The position numbers were made by a program, and so were the translations under genes. Below are positions 6,337 to 58,787 of a stretch of DNA of 64,000 nt, piece after piece. Position 1 is the stretch's first letter. Each line of letters opens with the position of its first letter. Below the pieces are notes generated by a model, which searched no databases, had not been told where the DNA came from, and was given only the letters and a program-made list of their open reading frames with translations. This DNA is from a virus. The stretch covers positions 1 through 64,000 of IMG/VR virus record IMGVR_UViG_3300027631_000002; one strand, written 5' to 3'.

Positions 6337-6363
6337 AAATCCACTCATTGAGTGGATTTTTTT
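6336..6363. terminator. Bidirectional intrinsic terminator
   Basis: Stem aaaatccactc/gagtggatttt with a very short loop and flanking A/T tracts, between convergent genes. Confidence 0.85.
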
Positions 6364-6739
6364 ATAGTATATTACTTTCTATTAAGAGTGCTTCCATTTT
6401 AACCCAGTCTATATAAGGATTTGTTGAATAACTCCAATTGTAGATTAAAGGGCAACCAATTGCAGTATCATCTATTATTAAATCGGCATGTGATTTAGGA
6501 GAATTGGTCCAAGATCTCTGTGTTGGATTACTATTTATTCCATAAAGTGTAATATCATTTTCTTTAAACCAATCAACTGCTTCTTTAAGATGTGAATTAT
6601 TACCTCTCATAGTAAATAAAATTAGTTGATGTCCTTTTTTAATCAATTTTTTTAATACAGGTACTGCACCTATGTCTTTTCCAACTAGTGGATAAGCGTG
6701 AGTTACAACAGAACCGTCAAAGTCCAGGTTTATAATCAT
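6362..6739 (-). CDS. HAD-like phosphatase
   Basis: A 125-residue haloacid dehalogenase fold protein. Motif I is NLDFDGSV near residue 5, motif II is LFTMRGN, and motif IV is ADLIIDDTAIG. The minimal size and absence of a cap domain match small phage HAD phosphatases that act on nucleotides or RNA ends. Its start overlaps the stop of the upstream membrane-protein gene (ATGA). Confidence 0.75.
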   Translation of the reverse strand: MIINLDFDGSVVTHAYPLVGKDIGAVPVLKKLIKKGHQLILFTMRGNNSHLKEAVDWFKENDITLYGINSNPTQRSWTNSPKSHADLIIDDTAIGCPLIYNWSYSTNPYIDWVKMEALLIESNIL

Positions 6740-8306: not shown

Positions 8307-8942
8307 TTATTTTGTTGTTAAAATCAATCTATCTATTCCAAGTGCGAAACCTATCCCAACATCATAGGAACCACCACCACAGATTTGTTTTTGTGCTCCT
8401 AACTCTGGACAAGCAATTTCAAATCCTTTACCACCAGTGTAGTAGTCAAGTCCTCTTGTTGCGTCTAAGTTTACTTCGTAGTTATCAGTTGCTAACTCAA
8501 TTAGTTTAGTTGCAATCTCTAACATTTCATCAGTCATATCTTCAGTTGGATTGATTACTTCAACACCAAATTGCGTGAATTCACGGTAACGCCCAGCTTG
8601 TGGTTTTTCTCCACGAAAACATTGTCCAATGTAAAATAACTTAACGTTCTTTGTCATTTTAAATGTTTCGTTAGCGAGCTGTTGTACGACTGCGGTATAT
8701 TCTGGTGCCAAACAGATGTCTCTGTTACCTCTATCGGTAAAAGTGTACATCATGTTGTTATTTTCTTCACCTACTTTACTAGCAAATGTTTCAGTTAGTT
8801 GAATAACTGGGATCATCATTTCTTGATAACCATAGGATTCCATAATATCAATCATTTGATTTAGTAATCTTCTTTTGTTTCTAGCTGTTTCACCAAAAAC
8901 TATCCTCGTACCTTTGTACGTTTTACTTGTCTTTATCTCCAT
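8307..8942 (-). CDS. hisS: Histidyl-tRNA synthetase catalytic core (minimal)
   Basis: A 211-residue class II synthetase core. Motif 2 is FRGEKPQAGRYREFTQF (about 109-125), the histidine-binding signature is RGLDYYTG (163-170), and motif 3 is GIGFALGIDR (197-206). Cellular HisRS has about 420-460 residues; here both the insertion domain and the whole C-terminal anticodon-binding domain are missing. The start at 8942 (MEIKTSKTYKGTRI) is preferred over 8981, which lies in the attenuator region. Upstream is a His-codon leader peptide and terminator. It could charge a tRNA independently of the anticodon or be a HisZ-like regulator; catalytic residues look intact. Confidence 0.85.
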   Translation of the reverse strand: MEIKTSKTYKGTRIVFGETARNKRRLLNQMIDIMESYGYQEMMIPVIQLTETFASKVGEENNNMMYTFTDRGNRDICLAPEYTAVVQQLANETFKMTKNVKLFYIGQCFRGEKPQAGRYREFTQFGVEVINPTEDMTDEMLEIATKLIELATDNYEVNLDATRGLDYYTGGKGFEIACPELGAQKQICGGGSYDVGIGFALGIDRLILTTK

Positions 8943-8968
8943 TTTAATAATATATTTTTTTAATAAAA

Positions 8969-8995
8969 AAGCCCAGATCATTATAATCTGGGCTT
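8969..8995 (-). terminator. Attenuator (terminator) hairpin upstream of hisS
   Basis: RNA stem GCCCAGAU/AUCUGGGC plus A-U extension, loop of 7 nt, then a run of six U. It lies between the leader peptide stop and the hisS ATG, where a constitutive terminator would make no sense. Confidence 0.85.
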
Positions 8996-26558: not shown

Positions 26559-26757
26559 ATAAGTAAGTGAGCTTAGCCGCGATTTTGTTCTATCCCATCA
26601 TTTATCTTTGCATCAACCCGTTCTCAAAGGGAAACCGACACCCTCGAATTGTTTGACTTGCTACTTCCTTAGTACAATCGACATTAGTCTCCTAAGTTAG
26701 GTTTTGTAGTCGCGAACTTCCTCTGTTTCCAGCGATAGGTTCTCTGCTTACTTATTG
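26559..26757 (-). ncRNA. rnpB: RNase P RNA, very short form
   Basis: Minus strand, about 200 nt. Ends close as AUAAGUAAG/CUUACUUAU (P1). The 5' core GAGGAAGUUCGCGAC and the 3' core AUCGCGGCU form helix P4, with the hallmark bulged U. AGAUAAAUGA followed by AGAAC matches conserved region V, and GUAGCAAGUCAAAC matches the bacterial GAGCAAGGCCAAA segment. The specificity domain is almost gone, replaced by CCUA-ACU-UAGG. Bacterial RNase P RNAs usually have 350-400 nt. It would remove 5' leaders from tRNA precursors with a protein subunit, perhaps the host's. Confidence 0.85.
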
Positions 26758-27259: not shown

Positions 27260-28165
27260 TTAAAACTGATGATTTCCTTGGTTCACGTTAAATACGAATA
27301 TACCTTCGTCATACCACATATCAACAACACTTAATCTATCGTCATAAACACAAAGTAAGTTATAATTTGGTTTAATATGATTTTCATATATTTCTTTTTT
27401 GATTAAAGTATCTTTTCTATAATCATCTTTTGGTCTCATATACATTTCATCGAACTCAATACCATGAAAGTCTAACCATTCTTCGGTAACTTCTCTACAA
27501 ACTTCATCACGACCAGTTACGATAATTACTTTTCTACCTTTATCTTTATGAAATTGTAATTGTTCTGATACAATTTCGTTTAAATCATCTTTATAAACTT
27601 GCATCCAATCGAATGGACCTCTACGACCCATAAGTGCAAGTGTACCATCGATGTCAAATATAACTGCACCTTGTTTCACAGAGTTAAAGTTTGGAGTTAA
27701 GTGAGGTCTTGTCATTTTTTTGACTGGTTGAAAGTCGAAAGAATCCATTAAGATTTTATATTCTTTATACATTTTATTGATAACAACTGGACCTACAGAC
27801 TTGTCTCTTTGTCTGTCTCGTTCTATCGCTTTGTCTTTTGATATATCAAAAACTTGATAGTCTATATCGGCACTAAACTTAAACTTCTCGATAATATTTT
27901 GAATATATTTATCTTTTAAATTAGTATTATCGACAATAACATTCATTTTTTTAAGTAATGATTGTTCAATTGTTGCATCTACTAATTCATTGATTATATT
28001 CTCAACTTTATTTTCTACAACTCCGGAATTTTTTAACATTTCTCTAAAGTCGTCTCTACTTACTCTGGTCCAATTATCATTTGTTTTCACAAAATCTTTG
28101 GCCCACGTAGATTTGCCGGAAGCAGGTACTCCGATAAGTATTTTTATTTTTGGATTTGTCTTCAT
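27260..28165 (-). CDS. pseT: Polynucleotide kinase / 3'-phosphatase
   Basis: A 301-residue protein, the same architecture as T4 Pnkp. The N-terminal kinase has P-loop GVPASGKST at 12-20, RVSRDDFREM and DRQRD. The C-terminal HAD phosphatase has DIDGTLALMGRRGPFDW from 171, VTGRDE and YDDR. It converts 2',3'-cyclic or 3'-phosphate and 5'-OH ends to ligatable ends, the first step of tRNA repair after anticodon-nuclease attack. The partner ligase lies two genes away. Confidence 0.93.
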   Translation of the reverse strand: MKTNPKIKILIGVPASGKSTWAKDFVKTNDNWTRVSRDDFREMLKNSGVVENKVENIINELVDATIEQSLLKKMNVIVDNTNLKDKYIQNIIEKFKFSADIDYQVFDISKDKAIERDRQRDKSVGPVVINKMYKEYKILMDSFDFQPVKKMTRPHLTPNFNSVKQGAVIFDIDGTLALMGRRGPFDWMQVYKDDLNEIVSEQLQFHKDKGRKVIIVTGRDEVCREVTEEWLDFHGIEFDEMYMRPKDDYRKDTLIKKEIYENHIKPNYNLLCVYDDRLSVVDMWYDEGIFVFNVNQGNHQF

Positions 28166-29207: not shown

Positions 29208-30044
29208 TTATTTATTGAACTCGTCAAATTTTAAAAGTTTTGATTCAACAACTACTTCTTTTGCAGTGTTACCTCTTCTTTCAATTGCTTTCCATTTCTT
29301 ATCTAAGAAAGCTAACTTAGCTTTATCAATTTTACAGTTTCTATCTGAAATGTTTCCTTCGTTAAAAAGTGAAATCATTTCGTCCATACTTAATGTAGGA
29401 TGTTTTTTATCAAACAAAGGATCTGGATGTGACCAACCAAATTTGAATAACCAGTTCAGCATAGCTGCTTTACTGAAGTCTTGATAGTCTGCAGTAGTAC
29501 CGTTACCTTTTCTCTTAGATAATTTAGCATTACCTTCAAAAAGTAAACCAGCATGTGTGATAACTGGAAATGTTTTATCTCCTTCTACTTCACAAATCTT
29601 ATCCCATATTAAGTGTTGCTTTACCTCATTTGCAATGTGGTCAACACCTCTGATGATGTTAGTTACATCATAATCGTAGTCGTCTAAGATTGAACAAAAG
29701 TTGTAAGTAGGGAATCCGTTATTTCTAAGGATAACCATTGAGTACTCTCCCATATCTAATTCATAACCGTTCTCAGTTTTAGTACCGATTTTCTCAGCAA
29801 CTTCTTTGTAACGGTCTAACCTTTCAGATTGTCTGAATGTGATGTCATGATCTAATCCAAAATCTGCCATCTGCTCATAGATATAATCAATCCATTCTGG
29901 TTTATTTCTTTCTTGGTCAGTATCATCAATTCTTAAAATGAATGTACCGTTATTCGCTCTTGCTTGAAGCCAAACAAGTAATGCTGTACGTAAGGTTCCT
30001 AAATGGAAGAAGCCCGTGGGGCTCGGAGCAACACGTGTTACCAT
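29208..30044 (-). CDS. gltX: Glutamyl-tRNA synthetase catalytic core lacking anticodon domain
   Basis: A 278-residue class I synthetase. HIGH-type motif PSPTGFFHLGTLRTALL (7-23), LRIDDTDQER, RGVDH, and the KMSKS-equivalent KLSKRKG at 174-180 are intact. It retains a remnant of the stem-contact fold (SMDEMISLFNEGNISD), then stops; full GluRS has about 470-500 residues with a C-terminal anticodon-binding cage. Its size resembles Glu-Q-tRNA(Asp) synthetase, which also lacks that domain. It could charge the Glu-scaffold tRNAs of this phage. Confidence 0.85.
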   Translation of the reverse strand: MVTRVAPSPTGFFHLGTLRTALLVWLQARANNGTFILRIDDTDQERNKPEWIDYIYEQMADFGLDHDITFRQSERLDRYKEVAEKIGTKTENGYELDMGEYSMVILRNNGFPTYNFCSILDDYDYDVTNIIRGVDHIANEVKQHLIWDKICEVEGDKTFPVITHAGLLFEGNAKLSKRKGNGTTADYQDFSKAAMLNWLFKFGWSHPDPLFDKKHPTLSMDEMISLFNEGNISDRNCKIDKAKLAFLDKKWKAIERRGNTAKEVVVESKLLKFDEFNK

Positions 30045-33461: not shown

Positions 33462-34337
33462 TTATTTTAATAAATTTAGTACTTGCTTTCCTCTTTTATC
33501 TAATTGTTTAAATTTAATTTTAAAAGAGGTACTCTCAATCCCACCAAACATTGCTGCGTTAGAGTGTAATTCACAAAGTGATGTTACTAATAATGTTAAA
33601 ACGGTTTCGATTGAATTACTTTTAACAAAATCTTCTACTTCATCTGATTTAATAGTATGAAATACCATATCTTTTAAGATTAAATCCGCAACTACTTTGT
33701 TATCAGAAATCTTTGAGAATGTATCAAATGAAACTTGTGCGTGGTTTGGAAAGTGTCTTTTACCTTCTTCGTCAATTATCATACAATAACTTTTCCCACA
33801 ATCGTGCATTACTTGATATTCTTTAATATCTTCTAATGAATGTAAGTTGTTAAGTAAAAACTCATTGTTATCGGTGAACCAAGTTGGTAATTTCCAGTTA
33901 TCGGTATCACCACTGATAAGTTTGTCAAAGTGTTTAGCAACAGATATACCGTGTTCTAATACGTTTTGAGTATCAGTTTGAGGTGTGGCTATCATATCAT
34001 AGATAACTTGTTGATAAGTAAGTTTTGGTTTTTTACCCAATAGTGGAAGATATGAAACTTTCTTTCTGACATCTTTATCTACATATAAGCAAATAGATGT
34101 GAGTTCATCGTTTAAATCTGGTTCGTAAAATTTTGTGACTGAGGTAAGTTTGGATAACTTTAAGTATAAGTCATTTAATTCTTTTTCATTGTTTACTTGT
34201 AAACAGATGATAGAGTTAGATGTGGTTTTCCATTCTTTAAATTGTTGTGGAAACTCGTATGCGAAGTCTGCAATTGAGTGACAACTTTGTTGACTTTGAT
34301 AACCGTAACTAAGATCTGATCTTGTTATAATTATCAT
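33462..34337 (-). CDS. HD-domain phosphohydrolase-like protein
   Basis: A 291-residue protein. The first 140 residues are unrecognised; the rest carries an HD set: NVLEHGISVAKHF, YQVMHDCGKSYCM, RHFPNHAQVSF, MVFHTI. These histidines and aspartate are spaced as in metal-dependent phosphohydrolases. The substrate is unknown. It is paired with the alarmone hydrolase gene downstream. Confidence 0.65.
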   Translation of the reverse strand: MIIITRSDLSYGYQSQQSCHSIADFAYEFPQQFKEWKTTSNSIICLQVNNEKELNDLYLKLSKLTSVTKFYEPDLNDELTSICLYVDKDVRKKVSYLPLLGKKPKLTYQQVIYDMIATPQTDTQNVLEHGISVAKHFDKLISGDTDNWKLPTWFTDNNEFLLNNLHSLEDIKEYQVMHDCGKSYCMIIDEEGKRHFPNHAQVSFDTFSKISDNKVVADLILKDMVFHTIKSDEVEDFVKSNSIETVLTLLVTSLCELHSNAAMFGGIESTSFKIKFKQLDKRGKQVLNLLK

Positions 34338-34573: not shown

Positions 34574-34600
34574 AAATATTATCTTTTATTCCTTTTGTTG

Positions 34601-34666
34601 TGGCGATGGAGGGAATCGAACCCTCGGTCTTTGGGTTTAGAATCCTAGAACTCACCTGACAAAGCC
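34601..34666 (-). tRNA. Truncated tRNA-like gene
   Basis: The 3' half is a perfect tRNA end: T-arm GAGGG-UUCGAUU-CCCUC then CAUCGCC. The 5' half reads GGCUUUG, so two of the seven acceptor pairs mismatch. Only 34 nt lie between acceptor and T-arm instead of about 40, so the D-arm is reduced, and the anticodon arm (around GGAUUCUAAACC) has no full stem. It is preceded by a tRNA cassette promoter. It could need repair or editing, or be decayed. Confidence 0.5.
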
Positions 34667-35497: not shown

Positions 35498-36757
35498 TTA
35501 GTTTAATTTTGTTCGGATTCCAGGCATGTAAATCTCAATCAATTGTATCAATTCTTCTTTACATTCCGTAGTCAATGATTTATTTTTATTTTGGTTCATC
35601 AAAATCATAAATGAACTTACTACTTTATTAAATTTAAAAGCATCTGTAAAGTCAAATATAGTTTTCTTAAATGATTCTATATCAATAGTTTCTTCACCTG
35701 TTTTATCCAACCACGTTTTCATTCTATTTATAAATCTTCTAATTCCAATTATATTTTCATCAGACCAAGAACCACCATCAAAGTAGTGACCAATAAACAT
35801 CAAGTAAAATCTAATTTCATCTGGATCATAACCATCTAAACTAACTACATTTCCTTTAGACTTAGACATTTTTTCTCCTTCACTCAATATCATTCCTTGG
35901 TGTACCAATTTAGTAATTGGTTCTTCAAAGTCAATAAAGCCAATATCATACAAAAACATTGTAATAAATCTAATATAAATCAAGTGCATACAAGCATGTT
36001 CTGATCCACCAACATACAAATCAACTGGTTTTGGTTTGATACCTTTCATCAAGCAGTATATAATAGTGTAGATAGAACTATCTACGAACGTATCCATTGT
36101 ATCAGTTTCTCCTTCAATAGGAATAGGACAACCCCAACTTCTTTGTCTTGATACACACCAGTCGTGTTGGTTTTCCAACCAATTTCTTTGTGACTTTATT
36201 GTAGATTCTGGAAAGTCAATCTTATCCAAACCGGCAATCAATCTATCTTTATAGTCGGTAATTTTGAAATACCATTGATTCAATGTTTTCTTCTCTACTT
36301 CTGTAGAACATCTTTCACATTTACCTTCTTTTACTTGTTCTCTAGCCAATACAGTTTCACAACTATTACAGAAGTCAACTTCACCATCTTTTTTATAAGC
36401 CAAATCTTTATCATACAATTGTTTAAACAACCATTGTGTGTACTCAATATAGTTGGGATCTGAAGTAATCAACATTTCCTCATATTGAGTATTCATGTTA
36501 TCCATCTGTATTCTAAAATTTTCTATATTCTCGTAGGTAACTTCTCTTGGATCTCTACCTACTTTCTTAGCATAGTTTTCCGCTGGCAATCCAAATGAAT
36601 CATATCCAAATGGTTGAAAAACCGTTTCGCCTTTGTATCTCAAGTATCTGCAGTAGCTATCCATAATCGCATAGTTATACCAATGTCCACAGTGCAAACC
36701 ACTACCTGAAGGATATGGAAACATCACAGTTACATATTTATAGTTGTTATCATTCAT
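35498..36757 (-). CDS. leuS: Leucyl-tRNA synthetase core without editing and anticodon domains
   Basis: A 419-residue class I synthetase; cellular LeuRS has about 860. HIGH-type motif LHCGH at 21-25, zinc-type cysteines C130, C133, C147 and C150, DWCVSRQRSWGCPIPI at 199-214, and KMSKS at 296-300 are all present. The CP1 editing domain is cleanly deleted between RNWLENQ and DWCVSRQR. The helical anticodon domain is reduced to about 70 residues and the C-terminal domain is absent. Charging without proofreading is expected if it is active. Confidence 0.9.
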   Translation of the reverse strand: MNDNNYKYVTVMFPYPSGSGLHCGHWYNYAIMDSYCRYLRYKGETVFQPFGYDSFGLPAENYAKKVGRDPREVTYENIENFRIQMDNMNTQYEEMLITSDPNYIEYTQWLFKQLYDKDLAYKKDGEVDFCNSCETVLAREQVKEGKCERCSTEVEKKTLNQWYFKITDYKDRLIAGLDKIDFPESTIKSQRNWLENQHDWCVSRQRSWGCPIPIEGETDTMDTFVDSSIYTIIYCLMKGIKPKPVDLYVGGSEHACMHLIYIRFITMFLYDIGFIDFEEPITKLVHQGMILSEGEKMSKSKGNVVSLDGYDPDEIRFYLMFIGHYFDGGSWSDENIIGIRRFINRMKTWLDKTGEETIDIESFKKTIFDFTDAFKFNKVVSSFMILMNQNKNKSLTTECKEELIQLIEIYMPGIRTKLN

Positions 36758-40017: not shown

Positions 40018-40045
40018 AGAGAGACTTTCGTCTCTCTTTATTTTT
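40016..40045. terminator. Bidirectional intrinsic terminator
   Basis: Ten-bp stem aaagagagac-tttc-gtctctcttt between convergent genes. Confidence 0.85.
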
Positions 40046-40898
40046 ATACTACATCTTGCATTAATTCAAATGCTTCTTTTTCTATTTCTTTTTGAAGTAA
40101 CTCCATAGCTCTTGCTAATCTTGTTAAACCAATTCCTGCACCAAATCTTGGAAAGAAGTCAAATTTTAAGAAATCTTCTAATTCTTTTTCTACTCTTTCT
40201 TTTCCAAATAATTCAAATAGTTTTTCAGAATATCCACCATTTTCTATTGTATAAAACATTTTTCTCATAGAGTCAACTTCACAACTTCTTTCTGCCGCAC
40301 CTATTGTTTCTTGTCCATATAATATTACATCAACTTTGTTGAATAAATCATCTTGTTGATTTTTCATATTCCAAAATGGATTAGTTCTTAATGGAAAGTT
40401 TTGAAGAGAAACGCAATGACTTACTTCATTCCACATTTTACTTTCATGTTCATTTTCTAAAATTGATACGTCTCCATATTCTTTACAAGTTTTATTGTAA
40501 TCCATTTCAACAGGTGATCCAAATCCTAAATACTCAAGAAGTTCTTTTTCTAATAGAATTAAATCTTTATATTTACCTTTTGATTCAAACTCAAACATTG
40601 GAAAGATTAGTTCATGTCTTCCAGGAATTGGATTTTTTTCTGCTCTGTAGCTTGTAGATACACAGAAAACTCCTTCCCAAGTAGGATTTTTTAGAAGTTC
40701 ATACTCGAGCCACATTTGCCCTGTTTGTGGTAAAGGCCATATCTCACCATTGTATTCAAAGGTTGATACTGAGTGTGGGTTTTCACAAGCTGCTAAAATT
40801 GATAGTCTAGATTGTGTTGGTACTTCTACGAAGTTTTTTTCCAAAAAAAATTCTCTTAGTTTCTGAACTAGAGAATTGTACATTAAAGTGTTTGTCAT
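40044..40898 (-). CDS. Class II AsnRS/AspRS-like core (possible AS-AR-type asparagine synthetase)
   Basis: A 284-residue class IIb catalytic core without the N-terminal OB anticodon-binding domain. Motif 2 is SYRAEKNPIPGRHELIFPMF (83-102) and motif 3 is RFGAGIGLTRLARAM (251-265); QETIGAAERSCEVDSMRKMF lies between. Length and layout resemble archaeal AS-AR, an AsnRS-like enzyme that makes asparagine instead of charging tRNA. It may make Asn or charge a tRNA without reading the anticodon. Confidence 0.75.
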   Translation of the reverse strand: MTNTLMYNSLVQKLREFFLEKNFVEVPTQSRLSILAACENPHSVSTFEYNGEIWPLPQTGQMWLEYELLKNPTWEGVFCVSTSYRAEKNPIPGRHELIFPMFEFESKGKYKDLILLEKELLEYLGFGSPVEMDYNKTCKEYGDVSILENEHESKMWNEVSHCVSLQNFPLRTNPFWNMKNQQDDLFNKVDVILYGQETIGAAERSCEVDSMRKMFYTIENGGYSEKLFELFGKERVEKELEDFLKFDFFPRFGAGIGLTRLARAMELLQKEIEKEAFELMQDVV

Positions 40899-44374: not shown

Positions 44375-45772
44375 TTAGTTACATTCATAACAATCAACTC
44401 TACCACTACCTCCACATTCATCACATTCTGATGTTCCATCACCATCACATCTTCCACATTCTTCTAGACCACGACCTCCACATTCTTTACATTCTACTGT
44501 ACATTCTCCGTCACATTTATCACAAGTTGATCTACCATCACCATGACAATCATCACATGATTTTTTCCCATTTCCTTCACAGTCAGTGCATTCTTCACCT
44601 TCTTCATCAGTTCCGTCTCCATCACAAGTTTCACACTCTACTTCGCCATAACCATCACAATCACGACACTCTACTTCACCATCTCCATCACATTTTGGAC
44701 AGTTCTCTGTTCCATCACCTTCACATTCAGAACATTCTTGTTCTCCTTCTCCATCACATCTGTAACATTGTCTTTCTCCTGCATCACATTCTTCACATTC
44801 AAAACTACCTCTTCCACCACAATTATCACAAGAACCATCTCCACCATCGGTACTAGTTAGTTCTGCATCGTAGTTTGAGTTATAGTTTGTACTAAGTTGT
44901 CCTTTGTCTCTTAGAAGATATTTCAGTGTATCCATATAAGGATAATCATCAAAATTTGATTGTTCTAATGTAACATAAACCCAGCTATCTTCTCTTTCAA
45001 GTTGTTCTCCATTAAACATAATAGGATCACCTGTGTGGAATGTTTGATTCATTTTATAATAGAATTCGTTTTCTTTTGCAAAGTCTATAAATAATTCAGT
45101 ATCAGAATGGTTTATAATATAAACTCGGTCCATAAATTTTCTTCCTTTATCATCTAACCAAAGAAGTGCTCTAGCTGTAATTTTATCTGGATTCTCTACA
45201 GATCTTAATATAATAAGTGATACTCTATCCGGATTATCGGAATAGATTGATAAGAATTGTTGACATTTTGGATATCTCATGCAGGAAGAACCTAGTGTTC
45301 CTAATTCTTTATCGTAATTTTCTACGTGATACCATTTTTTAATATCGTTACCATTAACTATTTCAAATCTTGTAAAAGATTCTTTCTCTATTAAGATAGT
45401 TGCTTTATATTTACTTACAAAATCTTCAAGATCTTTTGGTTTAACTTCGATGCCTGCTTTGGTTAGAATTGCTCTTACAAATCTACCAACATTCATGTCA
45501 GATTTTTTAATTGTTTTAGGATCTTCTACTTTTTTTGCTTTATCATCTGGTGTAAAGAATACTTTATCTTCTTTATCTACATCATATGAGATATAGTTAT
45601 AGTTAGTATCTACCTCTTCACCGTCTAATTTTAATAATTCAGATGCAACTGGAGATTTTATTTTTTTCAATAAGTCATAAAACTTATCATCTAGTACAAT
45701 TGTTGCTTCTAATAAAAGCATCATGTCTTTTTCTAGTAAAAATTCGTCGTATTTTGATATTTTATTATTCAT
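44375..45772 (-). CDS. Cysteine-rich protein, DnaJ-type zinc-knuckle repeats (copy 1)
   Basis: With the start at 45772 (MNNKISKYDEFLLEKD, tag-like) the protein has 465 residues. The N-terminal domain has SPVASELLKLDGEEV and VGRFVRAILTKAG. The middle has GSSCMRYPKCQQFLSIYSDNPDRVSLIIL, then ARALLWLDDKGRKFMDRVY. The C-terminal third carries about a dozen CxxCxGxG-type knuckles as in the DnaJ zinc centre. Two paralogues lie at 55738 and 57360. It may be a chaperone-like or RNA-binding virion protein. Confidence 0.75.
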   Translation of the reverse strand: MNNKISKYDEFLLEKDMMLLLEATIVLDDKFYDLLKKIKSPVASELLKLDGEEVDTNYNYISYDVDKEDKVFFTPDDKAKKVEDPKTIKKSDMNVGRFVRAILTKAGIEVKPKDLEDFVSKYKATILIEKESFTRFEIVNGNDIKKWYHVENYDKELGTLGSSCMRYPKCQQFLSIYSDNPDRVSLIILRSVENPDKITARALLWLDDKGRKFMDRVYIINHSDTELFIDFAKENEFYYKMNQTFHTGDPIMFNGEQLEREDSWVYVTLEQSNFDDYPYMDTLKYLLRDKGQLSTNYNSNYDAELTSTDGGDGSCDNCGGRGSFECEECDAGERQCYRCDGEGEQECSECEGDGTENCPKCDGDGEVECRDCDGYGEVECETCDGDGTDEEGEECTDCEGNGKKSCDDCHGDGRSTCDKCDGECTVECKECGGRGLEECGRCDGDGTSECDECGGSGRVDCYECN

Positions 45773-45830
45773 AATGTATATATTATTTTTTTTTATGTGA
45801 AAAGTCAATTATTTTTTTAATATATAGTTT

Positions 45831-50188: not shown

Positions 50189-50550
50189 ATTCCTAATTTA
50201 CTTAAAATTTTATCTCTATAGAAACTTATATCATCAACAATAAAAAGGTTTGAATCTGTAATAATTAGATCATCAATAATCTCAATAATCTTTGATGTTT
50301 TTTGTAGTGACATAATTCCTACATTTTGATTACTTGTAACTATTTGATCTATTTCTAATAAATCTACATTAGCTGGTTCTTGATTTACAATACCTTTACA
50401 TCTTTGTATAGAATACTTATCTATAAATTCTTTATTATTTAATATTTTTTTATAGAATTTATTTTCAGTATCTACCATAACATAGGAAACCTCGGTAGAT
50501 TTCCCACCGAGGTGATTATGAATTAAATCTCCTACCTTAATTAGTTTCAT
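50185..50550 (-). CDS. Hypothetical protein, divergent C-terminal tag
   Basis: A 121-residue protein with a beta N-terminus (LIKVGDLIHNHLGGKSTEVSYVMV) and C-terminus SFYRDKILSKLGI, a shortened relative of the tag. Start and stop overlap both neighbours, so it belongs to the operon of the HAD/tRNA-binding fusion. Confidence 0.6.
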   Translation of the reverse strand: MKLIKVGDLIHNHLGGKSTEVSYVMVDTENKFYKKILNNKEFIDKYSIQRCKGIVNQEPANVDLLEIDQIVTSNQNVGIMSLQKTSKIIEIIDDLIITDSNLFIVDDISFYRDKILSKLGI

Positions 50551-51383
50551 TATAGTATTTTAGTGCCTGGTTTGGCATTTACCACAAATACTGGTGTACC
50601 ATTTTCTAATTCACCTGGCATAATCATCGCGTGTGACTCAATCCCCATCATCTTAACAGGTTTTAAATTTGTTATGAACAAGAAAGAGTACCCTTCTAAT
50701 TTATCAACGTAGTTCTCACCTAAAGAAGGTTTAATGTTTGTTACAACAACTCTCGGTGTATCTTCACCAAAATCAACTTCTAACTTAATAAGTTTATCTG
50801 ATTTAGGTACATCTGTTACTGATATAATCTTACCTGTTTTAATTTCTAATTTAGATGAAGCATCTAAAAATTCCGAAAATTCTATTTTATCTTTCATGTT
50901 TAATATATTTATTGCTTTAATTTTACATTCTTCTTTTAGTCCTGGAATTCCTAATTTCCAAGGTTTTACTGGTTCTCCTGTTGAACAATTTACAAAATAA
51001 TCTTGTTGTTCGTCCAGGAAATCTTGTATATCATCAAATATAACATACTGGGTTACTTCTGGGTGTCTATCTAACCAAAGTTTAATTTCATGACCTCTTT
51101 TTACTTGGTCATAATAAACTATATTGGTTGATTCACATACATCTACACAATCTGGTGTTACATCAATAATTTCACCTGGTAGTTGACGTTCTTTCCATAG
51201 ATCTAACATTCTTTGAATACCTTTATCTTTCCAAGTGGAAGAGATAACGATTTTCGCACCTGTTTTTTCAATAATTTCCTTTAAGTTCTGGACGTATTCA
51301 TCCCTGAAGATATGACCGAATTGGTCTTTATCATCATAATCTACGTTTAGAACGCCGTCTATGTCAAGAAATATTGTTTTCAT
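50550..51383 (-). CDS. HAD phosphatase fused to a tRNA-binding OB domain
   Basis: A 277-residue fusion. Residues 1-150 are a HAD domain of the RNA-repair type: FLDIDGVLN with D7/D9, IVISSTWKD, IFDDIQDF. Residues 167-277 are an EMAPII/CsaA/MetRS-C-type tRNA-binding OB fold: LEIKTGKIISVTDVPKSDKL, VVVTNIKP, LFITNLKPVKMMGIESHAMIM. The combination predicts a 3'-phosphatase brought to tRNA. TATCTTTG ends 5 nt before the ATG. Confidence 0.85.
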   Translation of the reverse strand: MKTIFLDIDGVLNVDYDDKDQFGHIFRDEYVQNLKEIIEKTGAKIVISSTWKDKGIQRMLDLWKERQLPGEIIDVTPDCVDVCESTNIVYYDQVKRGHEIKLWLDRHPEVTQYVIFDDIQDFLDEQQDYFVNCSTGEPVKPWKLGIPGLKEECKIKAINILNMKDKIEFSEFLDASSKLEIKTGKIISVTDVPKSDKLIKLEVDFGEDTPRVVVTNIKPSLGENYVDKLEGYSFLFITNLKPVKMMGIESHAMIMPGELENGTPVFVVNAKPGTKIL

Positions 51384-51400: not shown

Positions 51401-51643
51401 TTATTTTTGATTTATTAGAGAAATTTTTTGAATTCTTGTTAGTTGTTTAATTCTCCACTCTTCTTTTGCTGCCAAAGATTTTGTTTCAAATTCACACTGA
51501 TACATCAGTTTTACTGGTGTTCTTGTCTTGGTGTATTTAGCACCTTTCTTCTTATTATGTGTATCAATTCTCTTTTCTACGTTATTGGTTATACCGGTAT
51601 ATAACGTCAAATCACTACACTCTAAAATATAAACATACCACAT
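51401..51643 (-). CDS. Single-domain GIY-YIG (UPF0213-like) nuclease
   Basis: An 80-residue minimal GIY-YIG domain: WYVYILECSDLTLYTGITNN, KRIDTHNKKKGAKYT, and the catalytic Glu region AAKEEWRIKQL. It resembles the YhbQ/UPF0213 proteins common in Bacteroidota. Possibly a DNA or RNA structure-specific nuclease. Confidence 0.85.
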   Translation of the reverse strand: MWYVYILECSDLTLYTGITNNVEKRIDTHNKKKGAKYTKTRTPVKLMYQCEFETKSLAAKEEWRIKQLTRIQKISLINQK

Positions 51644-55737: not shown

Positions 55738-57291
55738 TTAATTACATTCTGGACATCCAACTTCACCTCGTCCATTACATATATCACAAGATTCTTCACC
55801 TCGTCCATCACAGTTATAACATTCTCCTCTTTTCTCACCTTCACAGGTTTCACATTCATTTTTACCTGTTCCCGAACAAGTAGCACATTCTACTTCACCA
55901 GATAATAATTCTATTGTTCCGGTTCCAGAACATTCATTACAATCTACTTCACCATGTCCTTCACATTCAGAACAATCTGATTCACCAGTACCATGACAAA
56001 CACGACAATTTGTAGTACGTTCTCCTTCACATTCAGGACAATCAACTATTCCACTACCTTCACATATATCACAACCTTGTCCATTAGAACCATTAGTTTG
56101 AGTTAGTGTATAATATGTTGTGTGATTCGACCAGGGGAACTCTCTATTAGAGATTATACCAAGATCTGGGCTATAATACTTCATAGTATCCATATAAGGA
56201 TAATAGTCATAATATTCTCTTCTAAGTTTGACTGTTACTACACTTTCTTTACCATATACTTCATTTCCGTTAAAAACTAAACTAGAATCTTCTTCATAGC
56301 TTTGTTCTGATTTGTGATAATAATCATGTTTATAACAATACTCTTTGAATAGAAGTATATCAGAATTTCTAATAGTGTATATTCTGTCCATAAATCTTCT
56401 TCCTTCTTCATCTAACCAAAGAATAGCTCTACCAGAAATTTTAGTAGAATCTTCTTCACTTATTAAAATAATCATTGATACTTTATCAGAATTTTCAGTA
56501 TAAATATCAAAATATTTTTGACATTCTGAATGTCTCATACAAGATCCACCTAATGGTCCTCCAATTTTTTCATAATTATCTTCTAAATACCACTTTTTTA
56601 TTTCATCACCTTTAACTTCTTTAAATCTTTTAAAAACATTCTTTTGTAATTCTAATACTTTTTTATATTTATCAACAAAGTCTTCAATCTCTTTATCTTT
56701 ATATTCTAATCCTAAATTTTTTAGAAAGGCTCTAACAAATCTTCCAACATTTACCTCAGTAGGGGTAATTTTAGAAACATCTTTCACAAGATAATTGTCT
56801 AAGACTATTGCTTCATAGGTTTTACCTCTTTCTTCAAATTGAAAAACAAATAATTGTTGGTTATTATCGTACATATAAGACCAAACACCTGGATTATTTG
56901 GTGAAATTTTTAGAACTTCTTCTAAAGTAAACTTTTTTATAACCGTCCCGGTTTGACCATCAGATGGCTCTTTCCAACCGTGTATAATACCCATATTATC
57001 TGCTACCTTAGATAGATTATCATAAACACCTCCATTACTACGTAATGTGTATATAGCTTTATCAATTTTATCTTGAGGTTTAAAAAATATACTATCAGTT
57101 TTATCTCTATTTATATCAATATAGTTTCTGGTAACATCCATATCTCTACCCTTATATGATAAAATTTGAGCGGCTATATTAGAATCTATCTTATCTAATA
57201 CATCTAAAAATTGTTGTGTATAAACTATTTTAGCTTCTAAAAGAAGTTCTAGTTTACTTTCTGTAATAAAATCTAAGTAATTTGAAATCAT
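55738..57291 (-). CDS. Cysteine-rich protein, DnaJ-type zinc-knuckle repeats (copy 2)
   Basis: A 517-residue paralogue of 44375 and 57360. It begins MISNYLDFITESKLELLLEAK (tag form Y-x-x-F-[IL]-x-E). Conserved parts: IAAQILSYKGRDMDVTRNY, VGRFVRAFLKNLG, GGSCMRHSECQKYFDIYTEN, SGRAILWLDEEGRRFMDRIY, YPYMDTMKYYSPDLG. The last ~110 residues carry about ten CxxCxGxG-type knuckles. The invariant SCMR cysteine could be catalytic or metal-binding. Confidence 0.75.
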   Translation of the reverse strand: MISNYLDFITESKLELLLEAKIVYTQQFLDVLDKIDSNIAAQILSYKGRDMDVTRNYIDINRDKTDSIFFKPQDKIDKAIYTLRSNGGVYDNLSKVADNMGIIHGWKEPSDGQTGTVIKKFTLEEVLKISPNNPGVWSYMYDNNQQLFVFQFEERGKTYEAIVLDNYLVKDVSKITPTEVNVGRFVRAFLKNLGLEYKDKEIEDFVDKYKKVLELQKNVFKRFKEVKGDEIKKWYLEDNYEKIGGPLGGSCMRHSECQKYFDIYTENSDKVSMIILISEEDSTKISGRAILWLDEEGRRFMDRIYTIRNSDILLFKEYCYKHDYYHKSEQSYEEDSSLVFNGNEVYGKESVVTVKLRREYYDYYPYMDTMKYYSPDLGIISNREFPWSNHTTYYTLTQTNGSNGQGCDICEGSGIVDCPECEGERTTNCRVCHGTGESDCSECEGHGEVDCNECSGTGTIELLSGEVECATCSGTGKNECETCEGEKRGECYNCDGRGEESCDICNGRGEVGCPECN

Positions 57292-57359: not shown

Positions 57360-58787
57360 TTAGTAATCACCTTCACAGTCTGGACAAGTAATCTGATCAT
57401 CACCATCACATTGTGAACAAGTTTTCTTACCTTCACCACCACATGTTTCACATTCCATATCATCTATTTCACCATCTCCATTACATTCAGTACAAACTTC
57501 TTCACCATCTCCATTACAAGTTGGACAAGTAATAGTACCATCTTGTTCACAAGTTGCACAAAGTTTATCATAATAACCTTCAGTTGATTCACAATAATAA
57601 ACTACTCCACTTTCTGAATTTTCATTTGATATAATTCCAGTTTCAGGACTATAGTATTTTAAAGTATCCATATAAGGAAAATTTTCATGTCTTTTATGTA
57701 ATTGAACTTGTGCAGTAAAATAGTTTTCCTGTTGACCTTCTGGTCCAATAGCATTTATAGTTGAAGAACTATTATTATTTGATTTATACCACCAACCACT
57801 ATCTTGTGCAAATTGTTTGAACAGTTCAACATCAGAATCAGAATTAGTATAAACCCTATCCATTAATTTTTTACCATTTAAACATTCCCAAAGAATTGCA
57901 CGTCCAATAATTTTACTATCATCATCTTGTGATTTATAAATAATTAAAGATACAGTGTTGTTTTCAGTATATGGATCTAACCAACTAGATTCAGCTTCTG
58001 CCATACAAGAATTTGCTAATGTACCACTTGGATCATAGTAATTATCATACTGATATTTATAATAAATATCATCACCTTGAACAACATCAAAGAATGAGAA
58101 TTTATCATTGAATTTATCCATCTGAGCTTTATATAAATTCACAAAGATTTCAATATCTCTTGCTGTAAATTTGGCAGTATCATCTTCTCTAGCAGCTAAA
58201 GTTAAAAGAGCATTCATTGATCTACCAACTCTAACATCTTGACGATTTTTTGACCAAACCAATTTGTTTCTATCATCAACTGGTCTCAATTTCTCTAAAT
58301 TAAAAACACCTTGACCATTTGCAAATTTTAACCAAATCCAAGTTTTACCAGATTTTTCAGAAACTATCTTTTCAACAACTTCACCAACTTCTGCTGATGT
58401 AGGTTTATAAACATCTCCTTCTGGTACATATCCTAATCTACCAAAAATTCCATTATTTGCTTCACCGTGAGTTAGCCATCCACCATTATTTCCTACAAAA
58501 CGATATAATTCTTTTGGATCATTTAAAATCTCTTGAGCTTTTCTATCTGCAGTAAAGTACAAATAATCATTTCTTACTGGATCTATATCAAAGTAGTTAG
58601 CAACTACTGGTAAGTCTTTCTTTTCTAATCCTAGAATCTTTTTAGCAACAGGACTATCAATTTTACCTAATACTTTCTTAAAATTATCTGAAAACATTAC
58701 ATCCGACTCTAATAAAAGTTCAATCAATTGAGATTCTGTTATTAAATCATGTGATTCTGTTATAAAATCAATATATTTTTTTAACAT
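57360..58787 (-). CDS. Cysteine-rich protein, DnaJ-type zinc-knuckle repeats (copy 3)
   Basis: A 475-residue paralogue starting MLKKYIDFITESHDLITESQ, where the tag core FITES is repeated after six residues. Same domain order as copies 1 and 2: SPVAKKILGLEKKDLPVV, VGRSMNALLTLA, ANSCMAEAESSWLDPYTEN (second Cys replaced), IGRAILWECLNGKKLMDRVY, FPYMDTLKYYSPETG, then seven or eight zinc knuckles. The most divergent member. Confidence 0.75.
   Translation of the reverse strand: MLKKYIDFITESHDLITESQLIELLLESDVMFSDNFKKVLGKIDSPVAKKILGLEKKDLPVVANYFDIDPVRNDYLYFTADRKAQEILNDPKELYRFVGNNGGWLTHGEANNGIFGRLGYVPEGDVYKPTSAEVGEVVEKIVSEKSGKTWIWLKFANGQGVFNLEKLRPVDDRNKLVWSKNRQDVRVGRSMNALLTLAAREDDTAKFTARDIEIFVNLYKAQMDKFNDKFSFFDVVQGDDIYYKYQYDNYYDPSGTLANSCMAEAESSWLDPYTENNTVSLIIYKSQDDDSKIIGRAILWECLNGKKLMDRVYTNSDSDVELFKQFAQDSGWWYKSNNNSSSTINAIGPEGQQENYFTAQVQLHKRHENFPYMDTLKYYSPETGIISNENSESGVVYYCESTEGYYDKLCATCEQDGTITCPTCNGDGEEVCTECNGDGEIDDMECETCGGEGKKTCSQCDGDDQITCPDCEGDY

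What the first reader, a model, noticed from the sequence alone, without database searches (positions are those of the whole stretch)
50550..51383. HAD phosphatase fused to a tRNA-binding OB domain
The fusion joins an RNA-repair-type HAD domain with an EMAPII/CsaA-type tRNA-binding domain. I know of no described protein with this architecture. It predicts an end-healing or modification enzyme aimed at tRNA and fits the Pnk, ligase, RNase P and odd tRNA content.
Basis: partly seen in the sequence, partly recalled or inferred. Interest (0 to 1): 0.75.

Follow-up and report, generated by a model that had tools for sequence, protein, structure and literature searches.

The report
Phage phosphatase fused to tRNA-binding-type domain
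A group of large bacteria-infecting viruses has joined two genes, one for an RNA-repair-type phosphatase and one for a small domain whose known relatives grip the end of transfer RNA, into a single protein; the joining is real and seems unreported, but what the protein acts on, and whether it still holds tRNA, is unproven.

Summary
Window 50550-51383 (-) is an intact 277-aa ORF: HAD_SAK_2 (PF18143, E 3e-26, catalytic residues intact) followed by a Trbp/MetRS-C/EMAPII OB domain (PF01588, E 1e-16). It is no frameshift: eight IMG/VR loci carry the same fusion, at 85-100% protein identity and under purifying selection. Outside this clade the domains are separate genes. The closer HAD relatives stop at residue ~162; phage stand-alone OB proteins start where Met163 lies. 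No fusion turned up in 50,697 phage records, 72,556 plasmids or 395 Bacteroidota genomes. The stand-alone OB genes form a phage family, often in an operon with another HAD phosphatase, Nudix, Smr and GIY-YIG genes. One contig (L122) has an unfused HAD_SAK-OB-HAD_SAK array. The tRNA reading is only partly supported: the Trbp111 residue whose loss nearly abolishes tRNA binding (Arg75) is Val here and never Arg/Lys in the phage family, though the A76-pocket Ser and Met are invariant. The phage also encodes a canonical PNK/3'-phosphatase and RNA ligase. Best guess: a capless Mg-dependent RNA-end phosphatase, dimerised and steered by an altered 3'-end-binding OB module. New domain combination of known families; substrate untested.

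The parts
50550..51383 (-). HAD-OB fusion gene, 277 aa
50898..51383 (-). HAD_SAK_2 phosphatase domain, residues 1-162, ending at the native C-terminus of stand-alone relatives (KAINILN)
   Evidence: PF18143; alignment A7 with 24 stand-alone HADs
51357..51365 (-). HAD motif I, Asp7-x-Asp9 (nucleophile and acid/base)
   Evidence: invariant in A7
51234..51242 (-). HAD motif II, Ser48-Ser49-Thr50
   Evidence: Ser48 and Ser49 invariant in A7, Thr50 Thr/Ser
51021..51035 (-). HAD motif IV, Asp117-Asp118-x-x-Asp121 (Mg binding, inferred)
   Evidence: invariant in A7
50895..50897 (-). Met163, the junction: aligned with the start Met of stand-alone phage OB genes (vestigial or possible internal start)
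50553..50897 (-). Trbp/EMAPII-type OB domain with its N- and C-terminal flanks (the flanks form the dimer interface in Trbp111)
   Evidence: PF01588, PDB profile alignment, fold Z 11.9 to Trbp111, PMC11286949
50625..50669 (-). 3'-end-binding loop NLKPVKMMGIESHAM: Ser250 and Met253 (A76 pocket) kept, Val243 in place of Trbp111 Arg75, Met246 in place of Phe78
   Evidence: PMC11286949
50185..50550 (-). next gene downstream, 121 aa, start overlaps the fusion's stop by one base; unknown
   Evidence: kept in all eight loci
51401..51643 (-). GIY-YIG gene directly upstream; homologue of the GIY-YIG gene of the stand-alone OB operons
   Evidence: PF01541; 65% identity to L118:4015-4263

Best explanation
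Shown: two phage genes, a stand-alone HAD phosphatase of the Swiss-army-knife family and a stand-alone Trbp-like OB protein, were joined in frame at their native ends in the ancestor of one clade of large phages (host not determined; Bacteroidota suspected), and both halves have been kept. Inferred mechanism: the OB half dimerises through its flanks as Trbp111 does and holds a single-stranded RNA 3' end (tRNA or a tRNA fragment the first candidate) in a pocket that keeps the A76-binding Ser and Met but has lost the Arg of cellular Trbp. The tethered HAD then removes a phosphate from an RNA end, most likely a 3'-phosphate left by host tRNA-cleaving defences or by processing, so that the end can be ligated, matured or charged. 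The enzymatic step and the RNA partner are not shown.
For: Both domains far above curated cut-offs and modelled as the expected folds. HAD catalytic motifs invariant with 24 relatives. Fusion kept in eight loci with purifying selection on both halves. Exact junction between native ends: HAD relatives end at residue ~162, stand-alone OB proteins begin at the Met163 position. HAD-OB association is recurrent: fused here; side by side and overlapping in L122; a BT0820-type HAD gene just upstream of most stand-alone OB genes. K197, S250 and M253, matching tRNA-contact residues of Trbp111, are kept in the fusion clade (PMC11286949). The same phage carries PNK/3'-phosphatase, RNA ligase, four short synthetase-like proteins, a PTH2-like gene and tRNAs.
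Against: Arg75, the residue most needed for tRNA binding by Trbp111 (R75A nearly abolishes it), is Val here. A 3'-phosphate itself lowers Trbp111 binding (PMC11286949), so a 3'-phosphorylated tRNA would be a poor ligand unless the pocket has changed. The OB half is less constrained than the HAD half (dN/dS up to 0.42). The phage already has a PNKP-type 3'-phosphatase beside its ligase. The HAD_SAK phosphatase role is a family prediction (PMC7824862). Net charge of the OB half is -2. The fusion gene lies about 21 kb from the PNK-ligase pair.
Confidence: 0.42

Rival explanations
1. The OB half is mainly a dimerisation or scaffold module, as in MetRS dimers, and no longer binds tRNA; the HAD acts on a nucleotide, metabolite or protein phosphate.
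For: Trbp-type OB domains dimerise very tightly through flanks that are present here (PMC11286949). Arg75 is lost, and Lys33 is lost in some stand-alone relatives. OB half less constrained. The closest solved HAD fold is MDP-1, a small phosphatase.
Against: Ser82- and Met85-equivalents of the nucleotide pocket are invariant across the phage family. The setting is rich in RNA-processing genes.
Confidence: 0.28
2. The gene gives two products: the full HAD-OB protein and, by internal initiation at Met163, a stand-alone OB protein like that of relatives; the two mix in heterodimers.
For: Met163 is invariant and matches the start of stand-alone relatives. The upstream DNA is A/T-rich like theirs. 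Codons 152-168 have 1 variable synonymous site where 5.5 are expected, P 0.007. L122 also keeps a Met at this place within a longer protein.
Against: The region was chosen after looking; a scan of the whole gene gives P 0.15. The LR745206 OB protein lacks a Met there.
Confidence: 0.12
3. The pair acts on other RNA ends, for example 5' ends or caps together with Nudix and Smr partners, rather than on tRNA.
For: Stand-alone OB genes often lie beside a Nudix gene with weak likeness to RNA pyrophosphohydrolase, and an Smr gene.
Against: No copy of that Nudix or Smr gene was detected in the 64-kb window, and the OB fold is a 3'-end reader in the cases read here (Trbp111, Arc1p).
Confidence: 0.1
4. 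Artefact: frameshift, misassembly or chance similarity.
For: None found.
Against: Eight contigs from several metagenomes carry the same frame; both domains are highly significant.
Confidence: 0.01

Closest known systems
HAD_SAK_2 (PF18143), the Swiss-army-knife HAD phosphatases of RNA repair and jumbo phages
   Same: Family membership, catalytic motifs, size of the domain
   Different: Described in phages as usually stand-alone (PMC7824862); here a C-terminal OB domain is added
Trbp111 / MetRS C-terminal / Arc1p-EMAPII OB domain (PF01588)
   Same: Fold (Z 11.9 to Trbp111), length, dimer flanks, A76-pocket Ser and Met, Lys33
   Different: Arg75 to Val, Phe78 to Met; belongs to a phage family; fused to a phosphatase instead of a synthetase or standing alone
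CsaA chaperones
   Same: Same superfamily fold (Z about 11)
   Different: Sequence match much weaker than to Trbp/MetRS
T4-type polynucleotide kinase/3'-phosphatase
   Same: HAD phosphatase proposed to heal RNA 3' ends
   Different: Different HAD family (PF25109) and no kinase here; the phage encodes a separate PNKP at 27260-28165

Membership tests
HAD_SAK_2 phosphatases | Profile match above the curated cut-off | tested here: met
   92.7 bits against 27.5
HAD_SAK_2 phosphatases | Intact catalytic motifs: DxDGVL, Ser/Thr motif II, DD motif IV | tested here: met
   invariant or conservatively varied in 31-row alignment A7
HAD_SAK_2 phosphatases | Phosphatase activity on RNA ends | not testable with these tools
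   needs an enzyme assay; itself a prediction for the family (PMC7824862)
Trbp/EMAPII tRNA-binding OB domains | Profile match and fold | tested here: met
   60.9 bits against 27; Z 11.9 to Trbp111
Trbp/EMAPII tRNA-binding OB domains | Arg75-equivalent needed for tRNA 3'-CA binding | tested here: not met
   Val243; V/S/T/M/A/F in the 15 stand-alone phage relatives and LR745206 tabulated
Trbp/EMAPII tRNA-binding OB domains | Other 3'-end contacts: Lys33, Ser82, Met85 | tested here: met
   K197, S250, M253
Trbp/EMAPII tRNA-binding OB domains | Phe78 stacking on C75 | tested here: not met
   Met246; the MetRS domains tabulated also lack Phe here, so this is not diagnostic
Trbp/EMAPII tRNA-binding OB domains | tRNA binding and dimerisation | not testable with these tools
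   needs protein
CsaA | CsaA profile above cut-off | tested here: not met
   TIGR02222 22.9 bits against a cut-off of 119.65

The most novel reading that the evidence does not exclude
Phages have evolved their own branch of the Trbp OB fold, with the cellular Arg replaced, that reads an altered or damaged RNA 3' end (for instance one bearing a phosphate or lacking CCA), and repeatedly pair it with HAD phosphatases, in operons and here as one protein: a dedicated tRNA 3'-end quality-control or repair module distinct from PNK-ligase.
Probability: 0.15. Interest if true: 0.72.

Novelty: new variant of a known kind. Interest (0 to 1): 0.5.

Why it matters
A natural HAD-OB fusion links a widespread but functionally untested phage phosphatase family (Swiss-army-knife HAD) to an RNA-end-reading module, so it gives a concrete substrate class to test for the whole family. 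It also brings out a phage family of Trbp-like proteins set in operons with phosphatase, Nudix and Smr genes, for which I found no description, in viruses that carry their own translation and RNA-repair genes.

Tried and rejected
Local frameshift or assembly error: rejected, same frame in eight loci. CsaA-type domain: rejected in favour of Trbp/MetRS-C. Fusion elsewhere: none in phage records, plasmids or 395 Bacteroidota genomes (HAD hits in short stand-alone frames, OB hits mostly in frames of MetRS size). Recombination as the cause of the diverged OB half in L006/L008: not supported, its dS resembles that of the HAD half, so only constraint differs. Conserved synonymous sites at the junction as proof of an internal start: suggestive (P 0.007 for a region chosen after looking), not significant over the gene (P 0.15). 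The first structure model (8 close sequences, pLDDT 58) was discarded for one with 31 sequences. A joint 66-sequence alignment (A6) misplaced the HAD C-termini and was not used. A 29-base junction pattern scan had a codon error in it and says nothing. No solved or predicted viral structure matched clearly over both domains. The OB-domain tree supports the fused clade (100/97) but not firmly its nearest stand-alone relatives (83/87, L122 and L130).

Full report
What was checked. The ORF at 50550-51383 on the minus strand is intact and encodes 277 aa. Pfam places HAD_SAK_2 at residues 3-134 (E 3.3e-26) and tRNA_bind at 181-263 (E 1.3e-16), both far above their curated cut-offs. The PDB search finds Trbp111, MetRS C-terminal domains, Arc1p and EMAPII for the C-terminal half. 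An AlphaFold2 model built on 31 aligned sequences (mean pLDDT 81; only the loop 137-144 and the tail 258-277 under 50) matches MDP-1 phosphatases with the HAD half (Z 10.4) and Aquifex Trbp111 with the OB half (Z 11.9).

It is not a local accident. Eight IMG/VR loci carry the same fusion at 85-100% protein identity, with the same neighbours: GIY-YIG upstream, two unknown genes downstream, then a HAD-like gene and, where the contig reaches it, a cytosine methylase. L005 is identical to the window and L006/L008 share one fusion sequence, so distinct variants number seven, the window's included. Pairwise dN/dS is 0.02-0.09 for the HAD half and 0.05-0.42 for the OB half. Both are kept, the OB half under weaker constraint.

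How it arose. The best HAD relatives in IMG/VR outside the clade (up to 56% identity) are stand-alone proteins that end at the residue matching 162 of the fusion. Stand-alone phage OB proteins of 110-118 aa begin, in most, with a short Met-led stretch followed by IEFSEFLE or a close variant, which aligns with Met163-KDKIEFSEFLD. The fusion therefore joins two phage genes at their native ends, and Met163 is most simply read as the old start codon (inference). L122 shows a possible precursor order: a HAD_SAK gene whose end overlaps an OB gene (168 aa, with a 56-aa extension), whose end overlaps a second HAD_SAK gene. In the 634-kb phage LR745206, which shares GluRS (86%) and ClpP (83%) with the window, HAD_SAK and OB are separate genes far apart.

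An OB operon. Stand-alone OB genes mostly lie in a recurring array: metallophosphoesterase - BT0820-type HAD - about 60 aa - OB - Nudix - Smr - GIY-YIG, with gaps in some contigs. The window has a homologue of the GIY-YIG gene (51401-51643, 65% identity) next to the fusion and of the BT0820-type HAD at 6362-6739, but no copy of the Nudix or Smr gene was detected in its 64 kb. HAD-OB pairing thus recurs in three settings: this operon, L122 and the fusion. I did not test how often HAD genes would lie beside OB genes by chance in these HAD-rich phages.

Does it bind tRNA? [quoted passage not shown] a 3'-phosphate also weakens binding (PMC11286949). By alignment the phage protein keeps K33 (K197), S82 (S250) and M85 (M253) but has Val for R75 and Met for F78. 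None of the phage OB domains tabulated has Arg or Lys at 75, while five of the six MetRS domains compared do. Ser82 and Met85 are invariant in the set. So a nucleotide pocket is probably kept, but tRNA binding as in cellular Trbp should not be assumed. Relatives of this fold can also deacylate Ala-tRNA (PMC12021450), which needs conserved Lys, Arg and Ser residues of the 3'-end site.

What it most likely does. The HAD half should be an active, Mg-dependent phosphatase without a large cap (motifs invariant; mechanism from the HAD family in general, not tested). For jumbo phages this family is proposed to remove linear phosphates left on cut RNA (PMC7824862). With an OB half that by descent reads RNA 3' ends, an RNA 3'-end phosphatase is the best-supported guess. 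Against it stand the missing Arg75 and the phage's own PNK with a HAD_PNKP 3'-phosphatase next to an RNA ligase. Dimer-scaffold, dual-product and other-RNA-end readings remain open.

How far it is from the known. Both halves are members of known families by profile and fold; the combination was not found in 50,697 phage records, 72,556 plasmids, 395 Bacteroidota genomes or the held literature. These collections are not exhaustive, and the literature library lacks many subscription papers. I rate it a new variant of a known kind.

Noticed in passing
window 26563-26751 (-): Weak Rfam match to archaeal RNase P RNA (26.1 bits, gathering 84; E 0.0013 window-wide) with GAGGAA and AGCAAGU-like conserved blocks; possibly a small phage RNase P RNA.
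   Followed up: partly
window 20403-20809 (-): Full-length GOLLD RNA (322.7 bits) about 0.9 kb from the tRNA-Met gene at 21749-21822.
   Followed up: no
window 22489-22593 (-): tRNA-like gene of 105 bases found by Rfam but not by ARAGORN; perhaps an intron or a long variable arm.
   Followed up: no
window 34598-34656 (-): Short match to tmRNA, E 4.8e-7 but below the gathering score (27 bits against 47).
   Followed up: no
window 8307-8981, 29208-30044, 35498-36757, 40044-40898 (-): Four short aminoacyl-tRNA-synthetase-like proteins (His, Glu, Leu/Met-type, Asp/Asn/Lys-type), 224-419 aa, apparently lacking anticodon-binding domains.
   Followed up: partly
L111-L134, e.g. L118:801-4266: Recurring phage operon: metallophosphoesterase, BT0820-type HAD, stand-alone Trbp-like OB, Nudix, Smr, GIY-YIG.
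   Followed up: partly
window 44375-45808, 55738-57291, 57360-58787 (-): Three paralogous proteins with long C-terminal CxxC-rich repeats; homologues in LR745206.
   Followed up: no
window 33462-34337 (-): PTH2-like peptidyl-tRNA hydrolase domain at the N-terminus of a 291-aa protein.
   Followed up: no
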